Source: Lachnospiraceae bacterium (GTDB lineage Bacteria; Bacillota; Clostridia; Lachnospirales; Lachnospiraceae). From it: DNA of 32,527 nucleotides. Location: NCBI GenBank assembly GCA_015056925.1, contig SVFJ01000028.1, positions 1-32,527 on the forward strand. The letters run 5' to 3'. Both the position numbers and the translations under genes were made by a program. Positions 15,620-21,397 of the stretch are shown here, piece after piece (the first letter of the stretch is position 1; each line of letters opens with the position of its first letter). Below the pieces are notes generated by a model. That model saw only the letters and a list, made by a program, of their open reading frames with translations. It had not been told where the DNA came from and ran no database searches.

Positions 15620-16489
15620 ATGCCAAATACTACGAATAAAAAATTGATAAAGAGGGCAGGGAAGTACGGAATGATGACTGTTGCAGCATTTATTTATGCA
15701 GTAGCTATCAGTCTTTTCCTTGACCCGAATAATATAGCGCCGGGTGGAATCACCGGCGTTTCTATTTTAATTAACAGATTAATTCCGGTTCCTGTTGGTA
15801 CATTAAGTTTGGTTTTAAATGTTCCGATTATTTTGTTGGGACTTTGGAAGTTTGGATTTAAATTTATATTTTCTACGATGTATACTTTATTGATATCGGC
15901 GGTATTTATTGATTTTCTGGCACCGTATGGTGCGGTTACAAATGACCTGCTGATTGCATCTGTGCTAGGCGGTATTTTGCTTGCGGTATCTCTTGCAGTT
16001 ATTTTTAAGGCAGGTGCAACAACCGGGGGGACGGATATTATAGTTAAGGTATTGCAACTGAAATGGAAGCACATGAAGACGGGAGAAATCTTTTTGTTTC
16101 TTGATTTAGTGGTAGTTCTGGCATCATGGCTGTTATTTAGAGATATGACAGTTGCCTTCTATGCAGGTGTGGCAGTGGTTATTGATATGGTTGTGATGGA
16201 CTATGTTCTCTATGGACCGGATGAGGCAAAGGTGGTCTATATCATCAGTGATAATACAGAGCAGATTAAGCAGCGTATTTTGGTAGAGCTGGATATATCT
16301 GCCACCCTGATTCAGGCAAGAGGTGCCTATACCGGCGACCCCAGAGAGGTGGTTATGGTGGTTGTGCGTAAGCAGATGGCACCACGCCTTGAGGAAATCG
16401 TAAAAGAAGAAGACCCAAGATGCTTTATGATTGTGTCTTCGGCAAGCGAGATATTTGGTGAAGGTTATAAGGATATTCGAAGAGGTTGA
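15620..16489 (+). CDS. YitT-family membrane protein (DUF161 + DUF2179)
   Basis: Polytopic membrane protein of unknown biochemical role, 289 aa. Five or six hydrophobic helices occupy about 15-190, including the family pattern ALFLDPNNIAPGGITG-like segment (seen here as SLFLDPNNIAPGGITG) and KAGATTGGTDIIVK. A soluble C-terminal domain of about 80 residues (VVYIISDNTEQIKQRI ... GAYTGDPREVVMVVV) is DUF2179. The start at 15620 is favoured: GAGG (15610-15613) is 6 bases before it, while the in-frame GTG at 15608 overlaps the ilvA stop. Co-transcribed with ilvA; terminator directly after. A transport role is suspected for the family but not shown. Confidence 0.9.
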   Translation: MPNTTNKKLIKRAGKYGMMTVAAFIYAVAISLFLDPNNIAPGGITGVSILINRLIPVPVGTLSLVLNVPIILLGLWKFGFKFIFSTMYTLLISAVFIDFLAPYGAVTNDLLIASVLGGILLAVSLAVIFKAGATTGGTDIIVKVLQLKWKHMKTGEIFLFLDLVVVLASWLLFRDMTVAFYAGVAVVIDMVVMDYVLYGPDEAKVVYIISDNTEQIKQRILVELDISATLIQARGAYTGDPREVVMVVVRKQMAPRLEEIVKEEDPRCFMIVSSASEIFGEGYKDIRRG

Positions 16490-16492
16490 TAT

Positions 16493-16528
16493 AAAAAAGG
16501 CGATATAGATAAAAATATCGTCTTTTTT
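16493..16528 (+). terminator. Intrinsic terminator after the YitT-type gene
   Basis: 14-bp stem AAAAAAGGCGATAT / ATATCGTCTTTTTT (one G-T pair) with an 8-nt loop. The T run is part of the right arm. It separates ilvA-yitT from the chaperone cassette. Confidence 0.88.
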
Positions 16529-16559
16529 GTGTAATAGTTGATAAAAAGCGGTAAAATCC

Positions 16560-16631: not shown

Positions 16632-17174
16632 ATGGAGGATAAGGGACAGGTGGAAAATATGCTTGCTCAGATGCCGGAAGATATGGTAGATGAGTTGCAT
16701 CGTTTGTTACTTGATACACAAGAGCAGGGACAGATGATGGAGCATTTGATTAAGAACCAGATAGAAGTGAAGGATTTATTGATTGATAAGCTTCATAAAG
16801 AACTGGAATATTACAAGCAGGAATCTGCTGACCGTTTCGTGGAACAGTTAATGAAAGCGGTGATTAAGGTTCGCAAGGATATGAAAAAGCTTATGAGCAG
16901 TGAAAAGTGGGAACAGCTTTCGGTTGAGGATTTGCGAAGAGAGTATTTATATGTATATGAAGATATGACCGATTTATTGGAGCAGCAGCTGATAGATGAG
17001 TATGTATCGAAACAAGGTGATGAATTTAATGCAACCATACATCAGGCTAAGATAGAAGCAACGAATGACGCTTCTAAGGATAAAACAATAAAGCAAAGTC
17101 TTAGCGAAGGCTATAAAAAGGGAGATAAGATAATCATTCCGGAAAGAGTGATAGCATATTTATACAAAGAGTAA
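16632..17174 (+). CDS. GrpE-like protein, putative nucleotide-exchange factor
   Basis: Protein of 180 aa. A long, charged helical N-terminal half (about 1-95, e.g. IEVKDLLIDKLHKELEYYKQ) would form a coiled-coil stalk. The C-terminal half resembles the GrpE beta-head: GDEFNATIHQAKIEA parallels the GrpE pattern G-x-x-F-D/N-x-x-x-H-x-A, and SEGYKKGDKIIIPERVIAYL parallels the ending KGYK-x-x-x-R-V-L-R-P-A-x-V. GrpE releases ADP from Hsp70, and the Hsp70 gene starts 12 bases later, so this assignment fits the context. Divergence from housekeeping GrpE is large; a cognate, dedicated exchange factor is the inference. AGGAAGG lies before the ATG. Confidence 0.72.
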   Translation: MEDKGQVENMLAQMPEDMVDELHRLLLDTQEQGQMMEHLIKNQIEVKDLLIDKLHKELEYYKQESADRFVEQLMKAVIKVRKDMKKLMSSEKWEQLSVEDLRREYLYVYEDMTDLLEQQLIDEYVSKQGDEFNATIHQAKIEATNDASKDKTIKQSLSEGYKKGDKIIIPERVIAYLYKE

Positions 17175-17186
17175 GGAGAGAGTAAA

Positions 17187-18839
17187 ATGAAGTATGTATT
17201 TGGTATTGATTTGGGAACAACCTATTCGTGTATTGCGTATATTGATGAGTATGGCAAGCCGGTTGTATTAAAGAATAGTGAGGGTGACCATACAACCCCT
17301 TCCGTTGTTATGGTGGAATCAGAAGACAATATTATTGTTGGAACAGAAGCAAAGCGTTCCATCGAAATTGAAGCGGATAAAACGGTTCAGTTTATTAAGA
17401 GAAAGATGGGAAAAGAGCAGGATACGGTTGTTCTTAATGGCACTAAGTATACAGCTCCGGAGGTGTCAGCTTATATTTTAAAGAAGCTTGTGGCAGATGC
17501 AAATGAAGAACTGGCACAGACCGGAGTTTTGAAGGATGGAGAAACGATTAAGGATGTTGTAATCACTTGTCCTGCTTATTTTGGCATGAATGAGAGACAA
17601 GCTACTAAAACTGCAGGTGAACTAGCAGGATTGAATGTGCTTAATATTATTAATGAGCCGACGGCAGCAGCAATCAGCTATGGTGTATCCGGCGGTGATA
17701 AGAATGAAACCGTATTGGTGTATGACCTTGGTGGAGGTACCTTTGATATTACGGTTATGAATATAAAAGGAAATAACATTTCCGTAGTTTGTACAGGCGG
17801 TGATGACCAGTTGGGAGGAAAGGACTGGGATGAGTGCCTTATGGACTATGTAATGAGCAGATATGAGGAAGAAAATGGCGAAGACTTGTCAGAGGACCCG
17901 GAAGCAGTTGCAGCATTATATGTTGATGTAGAAACATGGAAGAAGGCTTTGACTGCAAGAGAAAAGGTTAATATTTCCGTGAATGGTCCTGCAGGAAGAT
18001 TTCGTGAAGAATTGACAAGGGCAAAGTATGAAGAGTTGACAGAGAGTCTGCTTAACAGAACCAAGAACCTGTTGGACGGTATTTTGGCAACAGCAGAAAA
18101 GCAGGGATATCCGATGTCAAAGATTGATAAGGTGTTGTTGGTTGGTGGTTCGTCAAGAATGCCTCAGGTAGCAGCTATGATAGAGAAGAACTATCATATT
18201 GTACCGACTCTTGCAGACCCGGATGAGGCAGTTGCTAAGGGAGCAGCTATCTATGCCGGAAATGAGAAGGAATACATTGAGTTTATTGAAGCGGAAGCTG
18301 TGAACACCGGTAAGAGTGTAGAGGAGATTAAGGAAGAGAATCTCGTAACAGGTGCTTTGGATGCAAAGTTTGCAAAGTTTGGTGGCGGCGGAAAAGATAC
18401 AAGAATTAATATTACCAATGTATTATCAAGAACTTATGGTGTTTCGGCGCTGGATGAGTTTGATAGAAAGAAAATTTTTAATATGCTTATGGTGAATGCA
18501 AAATTGCCGGCAACAAAGACGGAAACCTTTTGTACAGTGGTGGATAATCAACCGGGAATTGATATCAGTCTATATGAATCTCAGAGTACAGATGAGGTAA
18601 TGGAAGTAGACGGAAGGGAACCACTTACGGTAATAGAGATGAAGTTTAAGCAGAGGGTTCCAAAGGGAACGGCGGTAATTAAGACATTGTCGTTGGACAA
18701 TTCCGGAATTATGCATATTGTTGCTGAAGAACAGCTGCACCACACCAAGCTGGAGACTACTTTTATGTTGTCAAATCAGATGACACAAGAGGAATTACGT
18801 ATTGCAGAGGTAAGAATGGCTTCGGCAAATGTTGAATAG
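17187..18839 (+). CDS. Hsp70-family chaperone, lid-less DnaK paralogue
   Basis: ATP-driven chaperone-like protein, 550 aa against about 610-640 for DnaK. The nucleotide-binding domain is complete: GIDLGTTYSCIAY (6-18), INEPTAAAISYG (155-166), VYDLGGGTFDITV (178-190), LLVGGSSRMPQV (317-328) and GAAIYAG (352-358). After residue 360 there is an extra segment of about 45 residues, acidic at first (EYIEFIEAEA) and then Gly-rich, where DnaK has its short hydrophobic linker; the linker-like INITNVLSRTYGVSA follows at 407-421. The beta substrate-binding domain is about 415-530. The helical lid and disordered tail of DnaK are absent. It is therefore not the housekeeping dnaK. Neighbours (GrpE-like before, membrane J-like protein after) suggest a dedicated system. 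Confidence 0.88.
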   Translation: MKYVFGIDLGTTYSCIAYIDEYGKPVVLKNSEGDHTTPSVVMVESEDNIIVGTEAKRSIEIEADKTVQFIKRKMGKEQDTVVLNGTKYTAPEVSAYILKKLVADANEELAQTGVLKDGETIKDVVITCPAYFGMNERQATKTAGELAGLNVLNIINEPTAAAISYGVSGGDKNETVLVYDLGGGTFDITVMNIKGNNISVVCTGGDDQLGGKDWDECLMDYVMSRYEEENGEDLSEDPEAVAALYVDVETWKKALTAREKVNISVNGPAGRFREELTRAKYEELTESLLNRTKNLLDGILATAEKQGYPMSKIDKVLLVGGSSRMPQVAAMIEKNYHIVPTLADPDEAVAKGAAIYAGNEKEYIEFIEAEAVNTGKSVEEIKEENLVTGALDAKFAKFGGGGKDTRINITNVLSRTYGVSALDEFDRKKIFNMLMVNAKLPATKTETFCTVVDNQPGIDISLYESQSTDEVMEVDGREPLTVIEMKFKQRVPKGTAVIKTLSLDNSGIMHIVAEEQLHHTKLETTFMLSNQMTQEELRIAEVRMASANVE

Positions 18840-18848
18840 GAGGCACAA

Positions 18849-19298
18849 ATGATAGCAGTTATCATTATTTTTTGGGCCGCGTTGTTTACAGCGATTTTTT
18901 TTCTGCTAAGTATATTCTTAAGACTGCTGGCATCAATATTGAATGCCGGTATGGATATCATTAGCATTGCAGTAGCGGCTATTGTATTCAGTACAGCAGT
19001 TTATTTGGGAATCAGTTGGTTTGCTGATATTGTATATTATATTGTGATAGGTGAGTTTGCCAATAAGCTTGGGGAGTTCCTTGTTACAATATTGATAATA
19101 TCGGTAGTGTTAGGGCTGGTCGGATTTATAATAATAGCGGCCGCATCTATGATAATAAGCGTTGTGGTCTGGATTGCGGGAGCAGTGACGGCAGTGATAC
19201 GAGGTGTGGCATTTTGTGTTGAAGTATTGGCACATTGGTCCCATTGCGCATGCAATTTCTTCTTTGGAAAAGTACTACAGAATGTGAAGGTGTGTTAG
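18849..19298 (+). CDS. Small polytopic membrane protein of the Hsp70 cassette
   Basis: Unrecognised protein of 149 aa, almost wholly hydrophobic. Four transmembrane segments can be drawn, about 2-30, 36-60, 75-105 and 105-125, rich in Ile, Val, Ala and Phe, with few charged residues. The C-terminal end (CVEVLAHWSHCACNFFFGKV) holds several Cys and His and ends with a short basic tail. No enzyme motif is seen. It starts 9 bases after the Hsp70 stop, behind an AGGAGG site, and ends 9 bases before the next gene, so its stoichiometric co-expression with the chaperone genes is likely. A membrane partner or anchor is a guess from context. Confidence 0.75.
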   Translation: MIAVIIIFWAALFTAIFFLLSIFLRLLASILNAGMDIISIAVAAIVFSTAVYLGISWFADIVYYIVIGEFANKLGEFLVTILIISVVLGLVGFIIIAAASMIISVVVWIAGAVTAVIRGVAFCVEVLAHWSHCACNFFFGKVLQNVKVC

Positions 19299-19307
19299 GA
19301 GACAGAT

Positions 19308-21338
19308 ATGGCAGATATACAAACAAATATTTTGGAAAAGTATGATATTGATATCGATAAAGTGAATCTGTTTAAGCTGTATAAGATAGAGAACGCAGAT
19401 ATTTCCAAGGAAGAGTTAGATAATAAGATAGAGGCTTGCTTAAAGAGATGGCAGCAAAGCGTGAATGGACCGAATGAGCGTCTTGCGCAAAGAGATAAGG
19501 TGCATCTGGATAATGCATCTAAGTATGAGAGTATTCTTAGAAATGATAAGCTAAGAAATCAGTTATATGCGTATTATCATAAGGCAGGTGATAGTGCCGC
19601 AGATATTTCGTTTGCGAAGGAATATTTTGGACTTTTACATACTACAAAGAAGATAAGGAAAAAGGATGTTGATTTTTTCTTTGAATATTTTGCAGAAGAA
19701 AGAAAGAATAAAAAGGCTATCGTCGAGATGCTTAGTAAAGAGTTCAAGGTACTTGGCTTGAATAATAAGGAGAATAATGAAAAAGCGGATGACAAAGACA
19801 AGGAAGTAGAAGGCAAGAAGGATGACGGAAGTATTTTTGTCATGAATTTATTTCAGGAAGCAACCTTGCTTAAGCTGTGTAAATGTCAGGAGTTTTTTGA
19901 GGCGGCGTCGAAAAGCGATTTGATTTATCAGAAGTTTCCGGCAGTACAGAAAACGATGTTCGAATTGTTGGAACTGGAAAAAACTAAGCAGAAGGATGAA
20001 TTGGCACAAAAAGTGGCGATATGGAGAAAGCAGGCTTTTGATTATCGTCAGGAAAAGGGAAATGAATTTATACCGATTGTAGATTTGTTTAATACCTTGA
20101 CTGATGTGCTGGAATATAGGGATGTTATAGATAATTTTGAAGAATTTAAGTTATTGATTAAATTTCCAAAGCTGACTCCTTATATGTATCGTTTGGACGA
20201 TGTGAAGAAGGACACGATGAATGAACTTCTGGAGATTGCGAAGCGATATTATCGGTTTCGGGATATGAGTGATTTCATTCTAAATTATTTCCTTTTGATG
20301 CATGATAATTTCAATATTGGGACAAGTGCTGTCAAAGGGATGATTAAGGATGCAAAGAAGAAGGAAACAGTCAATAAGGTTTGGAATGCAATAGACAAGA
20401 AGCTGGCAGTAAAGAAGGATAGGGTACCTGTGGCGGCTGCGGTGATGCAATTTGTGATATTGTGGCCACTGTATTTGTTTTGGTTTCTGAGTAAGATGAT
20501 ACAACTTATATTTGTTGTATTAAAGAAGCTGACAGTGCCGATGTTTATTGTGTCGTTCATCGGAATGGTTGTTTTCATGGCAATCTTTACGAATGACCAG
20601 GGGTTATATGTGTTCCGCCATATAGTGAATAAGAATGAATGGTATACATATCTTGGCTCGGTGAATGATATGCAGGTTACCAATGGATTTTTGGCATTGA
20701 TTTTAACTTTTAAGCAATTGATTTGGGGCTTGGCATGGACTGGAATACCGTCATTTCTGGTGTTTTATTTCTTGAAATTTGTGTCGGAAGAGATAAATAA
20801 AGGTTATGACTGGAAAGGGTTGGACAGAACGATGCAAGCTGTTATGGATATAATTCGTGACAGGACCAAGAGCCAGTATGAAAAATTCAAGAGAAGATAT
20901 TATTTTAAGAGATTATTACCAATGGCAAGTACCTTGGTGTGTACTTTGATTTTAGGTGTAATTTGTATGTTGATTCCCAAAGGCTTGGCATTCTTAAGTG
21001 AAAAGACAGGATATTTCTACACAGCGGAGAAGGAAGAAGTGCCGCAAGAGGTTGAAAGCATCCTTCAACAGGAGATTCCGATGGAGGAGGAGCCGATGCA
21101 GACGCAGGAATGCATGGATGGTGATATCTTTAGAGTGACTGCTAATGCCGCTAACATCAGAGAAGGTGCAAGTACGGAATATGCGGTTATTACCACTGTC
21201 AGTGAGGGTGAAATATTGAATGGAACCGGCAATTTGCAGGTAACGGATGCAGGAACAATTTGGTATGAAGTTTTCCTGGATGAGGCAAAACAGCAGCGGG
21301 GCTGGGCAAGCCAGAAGGTTGTGGAATTCGTTGAGTAA
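19308..21338 (+). CDS. Membrane protein with J-like N-terminus and C-terminal SH3b domain
   Basis: Protein of 676 aa without a recognised full-length family. Residues about 18-91 follow the J-domain plan: an LFKLYKIENADISKEELDNK opening like DYYxxLGV-x-x-x-A-S-x-x-E-I, a helix with KRWQQ, a loop, then ASKYESILRNDKLRNQLYAYY like EAYEVLSDPxKRxxYD. The diagnostic HPD is missing (SVNGPN in its place). Then come a helical, charged cytoplasmic region (95-370, with a Lys/Glu/Asp-rich stretch at 150-173), about four or five transmembrane segments (374-428, 458-490, 537-560), and a C-terminal SH3b domain (607-675; VTANAANIREGAS ... WYEVF ... RGWASQKVVEF), likely outside the cell. Last gene of the cassette; terminator follows. 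Confidence 0.72.
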   Translation: MADIQTNILEKYDIDIDKVNLFKLYKIENADISKEELDNKIEACLKRWQQSVNGPNERLAQRDKVHLDNASKYESILRNDKLRNQLYAYYHKAGDSAADISFAKEYFGLLHTTKKIRKKDVDFFFEYFAEERKNKKAIVEMLSKEFKVLGLNNKENNEKADDKDKEVEGKKDDGSIFVMNLFQEATLLKLCKCQEFFEAASKSDLIYQKFPAVQKTMFELLELEKTKQKDELAQKVAIWRKQAFDYRQEKGNEFIPIVDLFNTLTDVLEYRDVIDNFEEFKLLIKFPKLTPYMYRLDDVKKDTMNELLEIAKRYYRFRDMSDFILNYFLLMHDNFNIGTSAVKGMIKDAKKKETVNKVWNAIDKKLAVKKDRVPVAAAVMQFVILWPLYLFWFLSKMIQLIFVVLKKLTVPMFIVSFIGMVVFMAIFTNDQGLYVFRHIVNKNEWYTYLGSVNDMQVTNGFLALILTFKQLIWGLAWTGIPSFLVFYFLKFVSEEINKGYDWKGLDRTMQAVMDIIRDRTKSQYEKFKRRYYFKRLLPMASTLVCTLILGVICMLIPKGLAFLSEKTGYFYTAEKEEVPQEVESILQQEIPMEEEPMQTQECMDGDIFRVTANAANIREGASTEYAVITTVSEGEILNGTGNLQVTDAGTIWYEVFLDEAKQQRGWASQKVVEFVE

Positions 21339-21349
21339 AGAATAATTTG

Positions 21350-21382
21350 AGGTGTCAAGAAAAAACACTTGACACCTTATTT
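21350..21382 (+). terminator. Intrinsic terminator of the Hsp70 cassette
   Basis: 10-bp perfect stem AGGTGTCAAG / CTTGACACCT, 8-nt A-rich loop, then TATTT. Its right arm contains the -35 box of the next promoter. Confidence 0.8.
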
Positions 21383-21397
21383 CATTTATAGTATTCT
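21369..21397 (+). promoter_or_regulatory. Candidate promoter of ylxM-ffh
   Basis: Perfect TTGACA (21369-21374) inside the right arm of the terminator stem, 17 nt, then TATTCT (21392-21397). The -10 is weaker (4 of 6). It would give the ylxM-ffh block its own start. Confidence 0.6.

What the first reader, a model, noticed from the sequence alone, without database searches (positions are those of the whole stretch)
16632..21338. Putative self-contained, membrane-tethered Hsp70 system
Four genes with gaps of 9-12 bases encode a GrpE-like protein, a lid-less Hsp70, a small polytopic protein and a large membrane protein whose cytoplasmic N-terminus resembles a J domain and whose C-terminus is an SH3b domain. 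That is a full Hsp70 triad in one transcript, with the J-like part built into the membrane and a cell-wall-type domain on the other side. The cassette is bounded by terminators and sits between ftsY and ylxM-ffh, the two SRP GTPase loci. A role in quality control at the membrane or wall is inferred.
Basis: partly seen in the sequence, partly recalled or inferred. Interest (0 to 1): 0.85.

Follow-up and report, generated by a model that had tools for sequence, protein, structure and literature searches.

The report
Membrane-tethered accessory Hsp70 gene cassette
A rare, transferable four-gene cassette in Lachnospiraceae bacteria encodes its own small Hsp70 chaperone machine that appears to be docked to a membrane protein, and both partners lack the standard contact by which such machines are switched on.

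Summary
Four tightly packed genes (gaps 12, 9, 9 bases) encode a GrpE-like exchange factor, a lid-less Hsp70, a small membrane protein and a large membrane protein. The same order recurs in all four other cassette loci found, in other surroundings; four genus relatives show the empty site. A separate housekeeping hrcA-grpE-dnaK-dnaJ locus with CIRCE exists. So this is a transferable accessory module.

Corrections: the SH3b end occurs in 2 of 5 copies; the right-hand hairpin predates the cassette; the "J domain" has no HPD and no direct match to known J domains, being tied to them only through one Rhodococcus plasmid protein. The Hsp70 keeps its ATPase residues but has lost residues that contact HPD (R167, Q378 and others) and the lid, and carries a roughly 40-residue insert before the linker.

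Best reading: a membrane-anchored Hsp70/GrpE module with an HPD-independent dock, related to the Hsp70-GrpE-J part of published GAP1-N2 double-GTPase systems, but without the GTPase. The other four cassette genomes also carry an HTH regulator gene that often sits with FHA and Ser/Thr-kinase genes. Function was not tested; conflict or signalling roles are the main rivals.

The parts
16499..16530 (+). A+T-rich hairpin with T run after yitT, likely terminator upstream of the cassette
   Evidence: Read in the sequence; RNA fold of 16485-16535 gives -19.3 kcal/mol; not reported by the terminator scan
16632..17174 (+). GrpE-like nucleotide exchange factor, 180 aa
   Evidence: Pfam GrpE 7.2e-12 over cut-off; homologue in UBA4364 1.9e-13; profile of 5 matches solved GrpE 4ani, E 3.1e-4
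17187..18839 (+). Lid-less Hsp70, 550 aa; ATPase residues kept, J-contact residues changed, about 40-residue insert before the interdomain linker
   Evidence: Pfam HSP70 6.4e-104; residue table against E. coli DnaK, HscA, HscC
18849..19298 (+). Small polytopic membrane protein, 149 aa, no known family
   Evidence: 0 Pfam families; hydropathy segments; same place and similar size in 5 of 5 loci but only 17-23% identical to the window copy
19308..21338 (+). Large membrane protein, 676 aa: N-terminal J-like helical domain without HPD (about 1-92), further helical region, about 5 hydrophobic helices (about 375-567), acidic linker, C-terminal SH3b (about 608-675)
   Evidence: SH3_3 1.3e-6, no DnaJ match; alignment of 5; hydropathy; AlphaFold2 model, residues 11-90 at block pLDDT 79-91, rest weak; J-like only through the Rhodococcus bridge
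21348..21397 (+). Hairpin and ylxM promoter-like site next to the cassette; ancestral to the locus, not part of the cassette
   Evidence: same hairpin and -10-like site at empty sites L101, L109, L117 and, weaker, L103

Best explanation
A horizontally acquired, self-sufficient accessory Hsp70 module. The large membrane protein holds a lid-less Hsp70 at the inner face of the membrane through its J-like, HPD-less domain and helical region; the GrpE-like protein recycles ADP; the small membrane protein is a partner or stabiliser of the dock. Because HPD and its Hsp70 contact residues are lost together, the J-like domain most likely works as a dock or regulator rather than a canonical ATPase trigger; the trigger is either a rewired contact or a signal from the membrane protein (in 2 of 5 copies with an SH3b domain predicted outside). 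Without a lid the Hsp70 should hold clients weakly and act as an ATP-driven switch or holdase for membrane-proximal proteins. Shown: gene content, co-occurrence, insertion site, residue changes. Inferred: complex formation, topology, trigger, clients. By descent it belongs with the lid-less Hsp70s of GAP1-N2 double-GTPase and similar actinobacterial loci.
For: Order conserved in 5 of 5 loci in differing surroundings. Catalytic residues D8, K70, E171, D194, T199, D201 kept and R167, Q378, E217, D393, K414, D477 changed in 5 of 5. GrpE. GrpE-contact loop around G32 kept. J-like bridge: best of 1,238 windows after ten from the cassette's own large proteins, and 0 of 500 shuffles reach it; the bridge is Pfam DnaJ 1.3e-8. 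Tree: R167-less lid-less group of eight rows 97/95. Empty site in 4 of 29 genus loci. No CIRCE in the window, a perfect one at the housekeeping locus.
Against: J-likeness rests on one bridging sequence; 11 other J-type candidates gave no signal, nor did profile comparison with canonical J domains (E 0.35; an eight-row mixed profile reached only 0.046). The structure model is poor overall (mean pLDDT 65.1, pTM 0.28) and no fold search could be run. No complex was modelled. The tree has long branches that meet. SH3b absent in 3 of 5. A GrpE-contact hairpin of the Hsp70 is shortened. Topology rests on hydropathy and the positive-inside rule only.
Confidence: 0.5

Rival explanations
1. It is a conflict or defence module: a GTPase-free relative of the published GAP1-N2 double-GTPase systems, in which Hsp70/GrpE/J-like proteins sense or build an assembly at the membrane after attack.
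For: Kaur et al. 2020 (PMC7159879, section 29 read, passages) describe GAP1-N2 neighbourhoods with HSP70, GrpE and FNIII-DnaJ proteins, TM segments and SH3 domains beyond the last TM, and other neighbourhoods with kinases. A genus relative, G151, carries a double-GTPase locus with two Hsp70s, one of which (G151a) groups with the cassette Hsp70s (100/99; 93/86). Patchy distribution.
Against: No double-GTPase (PF19993) over the cut-off in 5 of 5 cassette genomes. No recognisable toxin or effector in the cassette. PADLOC gives only weak matches (best 2.8e-4). Large protein not found in the phage and plasmid collections, GrpE-like protein not found in plasmids or viral contigs.
Confidence: 0.3
2. 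The Hsp70 is an ATP-driven switch in a Ser/Thr-kinase signalling pathway: HTH-FHA-STPK-STPK proteins phosphorylate or read the membrane complex, and chaperoning is secondary.
For: The HTH gene is found in all 4 non-window cassette genomes (E 1.4e-133 or better); two of these (RUG066, MC2017) supplied the search model, so 2 are independent. HTH-FHA-STPK-STPK is adjacent to the cassette in 2 and complete elsewhere in a third. Background: 5 of 148 family-draw genomes without the cassette; Fisher p 2.8e-5 for 4 of 5, and 0.005 for the independent cases alone, 2 of 3.
Against: The window's own genome has only fragmentary HTH matches at E 8e-4 (genome 96.6% complete), and in UBA4364 no FHA or kinase homologue lies in the 18 kb around the HTH. 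The module also occurs without the cassette.
Confidence: 0.25
3. The N-terminal domain is not a J domain at all; the large protein is an unrelated helical membrane receptor and the Hsp70 works with the housekeeping DnaJ or none.
For: No Pfam DnaJ match, no signal against canonical J domains, no HPD.
Against: Bridge to the Rhodococcus J domain in register over 52 columns, best non-self of 1,238 windows and 0 of 500 shuffles. Helix order short, long, loop, long, helix with the loop at 53-56 where HPD would lie. The Hsp70 has also lost R167, so canonical DnaJ should act poorly on it (inference).
Confidence: 0.2
4. An ordinary membrane-targeted Hsp70/J pair like HscC with DjlB/DjlC of E. coli.
For: HscC is a short Hsp70 (556 aa) that works with the J proteins DjlB and DjlC and is thought to chaperone membrane proteins (PMC8215388, passages).
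Against: Tree puts HscC with the genus triad and Nostoc Hsp70s, away from the cassette. HscC keeps R167, Q378 and a partial lid (82 residues after 507) and its partners have HPE; HscC is described as lacking the GrpE signature, whereas this cassette encodes its own GrpE-like protein.
Confidence: 0.07

Closest known systems
Hsp70-GrpE-FNIII/DnaJ theme of GAP1-N2 double-GTPase systems (Kaur et al. 2020, PMC7159879)
   Same: Dedicated Hsp70 with GrpE and a J-type protein, membrane proximity, SH3 domains beyond a last TM helix in some members; an Hsp70 of the genus relative's double-GTPase locus groups with the cassette Hsp70s (100/99; 93/86)
   Different: No double-GTPase over the cut-off in 5 of 5 cassette genomes; no FNIII repeat found in the large protein; J-like domain, TM helices and, in 2 of 5, SH3b are in one protein; a small membrane gene is added; GAP1 itself was not searched
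Tsukamurella and Nocardia loci with GrpE, lid-less Hsp70 and a 706-aa protein (L095, L097)
   Same: GrpE (Pfam 1.2e-7 for Tsukamurella; by tblastn for Nocardia), lid-less Hsp70 with R167, Q378 and E217 changed and a long pre-linker insert
   Different: grpE is divergent from the Hsp70 gene; the Tsukamurella partner protein has no Pfam match and no strongly hydrophobic segment (maximum 1.52, against 2.8-3.1 in the four homologues of the large protein)
HscC with DjlB/DjlC (E. coli)
   Same: Short accessory Hsp70 with dedicated J partners and a proposed membrane role
   Different: Keeps R167 and a partial lid, J partners have HPE, described as lacking the GrpE signature
Mitochondrial import motor: mtHsp70, Mge1 (GrpE type), Pam18 and HPD-less J-like Pam16
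   Same: Works-like parallel: Hsp70 plus exchange factor plus an HPD-less J-like protein at a membrane; Pam16 cannot stimulate and regulates instead (PMC12953747, passages)
   Different: No HPD-bearing Pam18 counterpart in the cassette, no translocase, lid-less Hsp70; common descent was not tested

Membership tests
Hsp70 superfamily | Nucleotide-binding domain with catalytic residues | tested here: met
   Pfam HSP70 6.4e-104; six catalytic positions kept in 5 of 5
Hsp70 superfamily | C-terminal alpha-helical lid | tested here: not met
   18 residues after DnaK 507 in 5 of 5; the beta part of the substrate domain aligns
DnaK (housekeeping) | NCBIfam equivalog cut-off | tested here: not met
   TIGR02350 349.9 bits against 822.55
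GrpE | Sequence profile over curated cut-off | tested here: met
   Pfam 45.7 bits against 25.8; NCBIfam equivalog cut-offs not reached (best 27.9 against 137)
GrpE | Nucleotide exchange activity on an Hsp70 | not testable with these tools
   needs an assay
J-domain proteins | HPD motif between helices II and III | tested here: not met
   No HPD in the first 95 residues of 5 of 5; conserved W, S, N-G and N-E there instead
J-domain proteins | Pfam DnaJ profile match | tested here: not met
   None at E<=1 for the window protein and none at E<=0.5 for RUG066, MC2017 and UBA4364; P6A3 not scanned
J-domain proteins | J fold | tested here: inconclusive
   Helix order fits; indirect profile link; fold search could not be run
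HscC | Groups with HscC; keeps R167 and partial lid | tested here: not met
GAP1-N2 double-GTPase system | DO-GTPase gene | tested here: not met
   PF19993 over cut-off in 0 of 5 cassette genomes; one sub-cut-off match in MC2017; PF19975 not searched genome-wide
GAP1-N2 double-GTPase system | GAP1 gene | not tested
   no search made for GAP1
GAP1-N2 double-GTPase system | Hsp70 + GrpE + J-type protein (its second theme) | tested here: inconclusive
   Hsp70 and GrpE met; J-type part uncertain

The most novel reading that the evidence does not exclude
A bacterial Hsp70 machine in which both sides of the otherwise general J-domain switch (HPD on the co-chaperone, R167 and neighbours on Hsp70) have been discarded together and replaced by a membrane-built dock, so that ATP hydrolysis is gated by a membrane or kinase signal instead of a classical J domain; the loss happened once at the base of a lid-less Hsp70 clade shared by actinobacteria and Lachnospiraceae.
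Probability: 0.35. Interest if true: 0.78.

Novelty: new variant of a known kind. Interest (0 to 1): 0.58.

Why it matters
The contact between HPD and R167 is described as critical for switching on Hsp70 machines (PMC8215388 and PMC13012618, passages). A natural set of apparent paired losses, with the ATPase site intact and its own GrpE-like factor, would test which parts of the J switch are dispensable. It also links a small, clonable four-gene module to the double-GTPase/Hsp70 systems known so far from sequence, and offers a concrete case, with kinase and FHA genes nearby in some genomes, for asking what membrane-tethered accessory Hsp70s do.

Tried and rejected
SRP link: rejected, since the site is an insertion between yitT and ylxM and the window's flanking genes are not in the stretches held around the other four cassettes. 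Heat-shock regulon: no CIRCE within 3 mismatches in the window. Plasmid, phage or viral cargo: none found (GrpE-like protein in viral contigs and plasmids; large protein in plasmids and phages). HscC membership: rejected. Genome scan with P0004 alone found nothing; the GrpE-like alignment found four loci; both scans rest on short peptide patterns and are not exhaustive. Profile comparison with canonical J domains failed. Class-wide search with the J-like domain gave 5 of the other 390 genomes at E 0.003-0.0075, about what chance gives. Matches in G163, G166, G184, G427, G529 and G000:C9 cover only the SH3 part and were not counted as relatives. Large protein against the genus relative's membrane GTPase: no similarity. 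G177b, G184_dnaK2 and G151b were left out of the lineage count of R167 and HPD, as their J partners were not settled; G151b was also dropped from the second tree. GC content of the cassette is like its flanks, so composition does not show transfer. Hydropathy was run on gapped rows by mistake and was redone. The HTH background was first computed on 149 genomes; the right number is 148, recomputed (p 2.8e-5 instead of 2.7e-5).
Full report
What was claimed.

Gene content. The four ORFs are where stated, with gaps of 12, 9 and 9 bases, and a purine-rich stretch precedes each start. The first protein is GrpE-like (Pfam 7.2e-12), and so is its homologue in UBA4364 (1.9e-13); a profile of five matches solved GrpE 4ani at 3.1e-4. 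The second is an Hsp70 (6.4e-104) far below the DnaK equivalog cut-off (349.9 against 822.55 bits). The third has no family match and several hydrophobic segments. The fourth has an SH3_3 domain (1.3e-6) and no DnaJ match at E up to 1.

Housekeeping locus and regulation. The same genome has grpE and dnaK (Pfam) between genes that by sight are hrcA and dnaJ, with a perfect CIRCE site (motif recalled); the window has none within three mismatches. The cassette is therefore additional and probably outside the HrcA regulon.

Co-occurrence. A scan of genome contigs with the GrpE-like alignment returned four loci out of 305 pattern matches: Lachnospiraceae bacterium MC2017 (L064), P6A3 (L065; contig length equal to that of G544:C4), UBA4364 (L066) and RUG066 (L067; contig length equal to that of G068:C27). 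All four have the same four genes in the same order, with gaps of 8 to 65 bases for the starts I chose. Identity to the window: GrpE-like 52-62%, Hsp70 65-82%, small membrane protein 17-23%, large protein 36-40%. SH3_3 is present in the window and MC2017, absent in RUG066 and UBA4364 by Pfam and in P6A3 by alignment: 2 of 5. None of the window's neighbours smc, ftsY, ilvA, yitT, ylxM and ffh was found (E<=1e-10) in the stretches held around the other four.

Rarity and transfer. Matches to the large protein beyond its SH3 part occur in 2 of 150 family genomes including the window's own, in the window's own only of 116 relatives (two further hits are SH3 only), and in 2 of 392 order genomes including its own (three further hits are SH3 only). 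These draws overlap and should not be added. A strict Hsp70 profile search found 1 of 348 phylum genomes, its own. Of 29 genus loci around ffh (32 of 37 genomes searched had ffh), 4 reach yitT and show it next to ylxM; none of the 29 contains cassette genes, 25 of them with 1.1 kb or more held beside ylxM. Base composition does not set the cassette apart.

The Hsp70. In E. coli DnaK numbering, D8, K70, E171, D194, T199 and D201 are kept in 5 of 5. R167 is N (S in RUG066), Q378 is Y (F in RUG066), E217 is S or T, D393 is N, K414 is V or I, and D477 is S or A. The contacts D35-R167, D35-Q378, H33-L391, P34-P419 and K48-D477 are given in PMC8215388 (passages); the E217 contact and the suppression of R167A by D35N are from PMC13012618 (passages); the roles of D393 and K414 are recalled. 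P419 is kept and L391 is I. Only 18 residues follow position 507, and the stretch 371-388 spans 58-60 residues against 18-20 in E. coli DnaK, HscA, HscC and own DnaK. The loop around G32 is kept and the 284-302 hairpin is shortened (both as GrpE contacts are recalled).

Relatives of the Hsp70. A genus relative (G151) has a locus with a double-GTPase (1.5e-9), two Hsp70s and a 1042-aa protein with a weak fn3 match and no DnaJ match, followed by another GTPase-like ORF under the cut-off. Its first Hsp70 (G151a) also has R167N, Q378Y and 19 residues after 507. Tblastn on plasmids found 175 records with some Hsp70; I looked at four loci. Tsukamurella and Nocardia have a lid-less Hsp70 with R167G and Q378Y and a GrpE-type gene (Pfam 1.2e-7 for Tsukamurella; by tblastn for Nocardia). 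A Rhodococcus plasmid has a lid-less Hsp70 that keeps R167, with GrpE and a J-TPR protein. In the tree these form one group with the cassette (92/93), with 97/95 for the eight R167-less rows, apart from DnaK, HscA and HscC; the program warns of long branches meeting.

The J-like domain. The five N-termini share a conserved W, S, N-G and N-E where HPD would lie and have no HPD. Direct comparison with canonical J domains gave nothing (E 0.35; 0.046 for a mixed eight-row profile). The five-row profile matched the Rhodococcus J domain over 52 columns at score 27.0, E 1.5e-4. In a control of 1,238 windows from session loci this was the best after ten windows from the cassette's large proteins themselves, the next scoring 22.3, and 0 of 500 shuffles of it reached 27. 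Eleven other J-type candidates, including the Tsukamurella and G151 proteins, stayed at 8.7-13.1; a two-row Tsukamurella/Nocardia profile reached 17.2 (E 0.022) against the cassette, 21.1 (E 0.0027) against the Rhodococcus domain and 9.3 against canonical J domains. The Rhodococcus domain is Pfam DnaJ 1.3e-8 and has N-H-P-N at the place of H-P-D. So the link is better than chance but rests on one bridge. AlphaFold2 on five sequences gave residues 11-90 at block pLDDT 79-91, helices 21-24, 34-52, 57-78 (with a break) and 80-92, which is the order of a J domain (recalled); the whole model is weak (65.1, pTM 0.28). No fold search could be run because the machine was busy.

Paired loss. By eye over the alignments: lineages whose J partner keeps an acid at the third HPD place (E. 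coli DnaK, HscA, HscC; own DnaK; the genus triad with S-P-E or T-P-E) keep R167, 5 of 5. Of five lineages without the acid (cassette, G151, Tsukamurella/Nocardia, Nostoc, Rhodococcus), 4 have lost R167 (Fisher p 0.048). The J-like status of the G151 and Tsukamurella partners is itself uncertain, so this is suggestive only.

Kinase and FHA neighbours. MC2017 and RUG066 carry HTH, FHA and two Ser/Thr kinases beside the cassette, upstream in one and downstream in the other. The HTH is found in all four non-window cassette genomes; two of these are the sources of the search model, so P6A3 and UBA4364 are the independent cases. The window genome passes the tool's E<=0.001 only with fragmentary matches at 8e-4, which I count as a miss. 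P6A3 has the complete module elsewhere; in UBA4364 no FHA or kinase homologue lies in the 18 kb looked at. Over nine HTH loci seen, an FHA homologue stands beside it in 6 and a homologous kinase in 6. In the family draw 6 of 150 genomes have the HTH, five of them among the 148 without the cassette; Fisher p 2.8e-5 for 4 of 5 against 5 of 148, and 0.005 for the independent cases, 2 of 3.

Membrane layout. Hydrophobic stretches at about 375-427, 460-490 and 536-562, a strongly basic loop before the last of them and an acidic stretch after 564 fit a cytoplasmic N-terminus and an outside SH3b with about five helices, by the positive-inside rule. This is inference.

Comparison with the literature. 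Kaur et al. 2020 (section 29 read) describe GAP1-N2 double-GTPase neighbourhoods, of which about 14% have HSP70 and GrpE, with an FNIII protein typically fused to a DnaJ domain or TPRs, and whose membrane GTPases may carry SH3 domains beyond the last TM. The cassette resembles that theme without a double-GTPase over the cut-off in any of 5 cassette genomes. HPD-less J-like Pam16 with mtHsp70 and Mge1 is a works-like parallel (PMC12953747, passages). Among the titles listed by eight library searches (lists capped at 8-20) none is about this cassette; subscription papers are mostly not covered.

Verdict. A real, conserved, transferable accessory Hsp70/GrpE module, apparently tethered to the membrane, with a co-ordinated loss of the canonical J switch. 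What it does is open; a membrane dock for an HPD-independent Hsp70 is the reading I prefer, with conflict and kinase signalling as serious rivals.

Noticed in passing
L047 7233-10974, L049 288-4016, L050 8777-12491, L051 8869-12609, L052 144-3294: A different Hsp70/J gene pair in genus mates, with an upstream about 205-217-aa protein in L047, L049, L050 and L051: weakly GrpE-like in the one scanned (L050, Pfam 1.7e-5, just under cut-off), 553-558-aa Hsp70 that groups loosely with HscC, and a J protein (J-TPR-SEC-C in L050) with S-P-E (T-P-E in L052) in place of HPD.
   Followed up: partly
L045 5972-16782 (G151): Double-GTPase locus with two Hsp70s, the second 754 aa with changed J-contact residues, and a 1042-aa protein with a weak fn3 match; fits the published GAP1-N2 theme.
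   Followed up: partly
L059 3338-5210 and L085 9181-11054 (G544): A ClpP-like gene plus a type IV coupling-protein-like gene sit next to the cassette; a pair 35% identical to them sits next to the HTH-FHA-kinase module in the same genome.
   Followed up: partly
L087 8885-14325, L089 5928-9012, L088 5798-9150: HTH-FHA-kinase modules in family genomes without the cassette; kinase number varies, and in L088 the gene after FHA looks kinase-like by eye but did not match the other kinases.
   Followed up: no
L098 7830-10761 (Nostoc plasmid): DnaJ-GrpE-Hsp70 triad whose J domain lacks HPD and whose Hsp70 has Q at R167: a possible further case of paired loss.
   Followed up: no
L048 8146-10101 (G177): A 651-aa DnaK copy close to housekeeping DnaK but with N at T199 and S at D201, near a 919-aa ORF and a 791-aa ORF that starts like an Hsp70 (by eye); may be ATPase-dead.
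   Followed up: no
window 21348-21397: Inverted repeat overlapping the -35 of the ylxM promoter-like site, conserved in genus relatives; may be an operator as well as a terminator.
   Followed up: no
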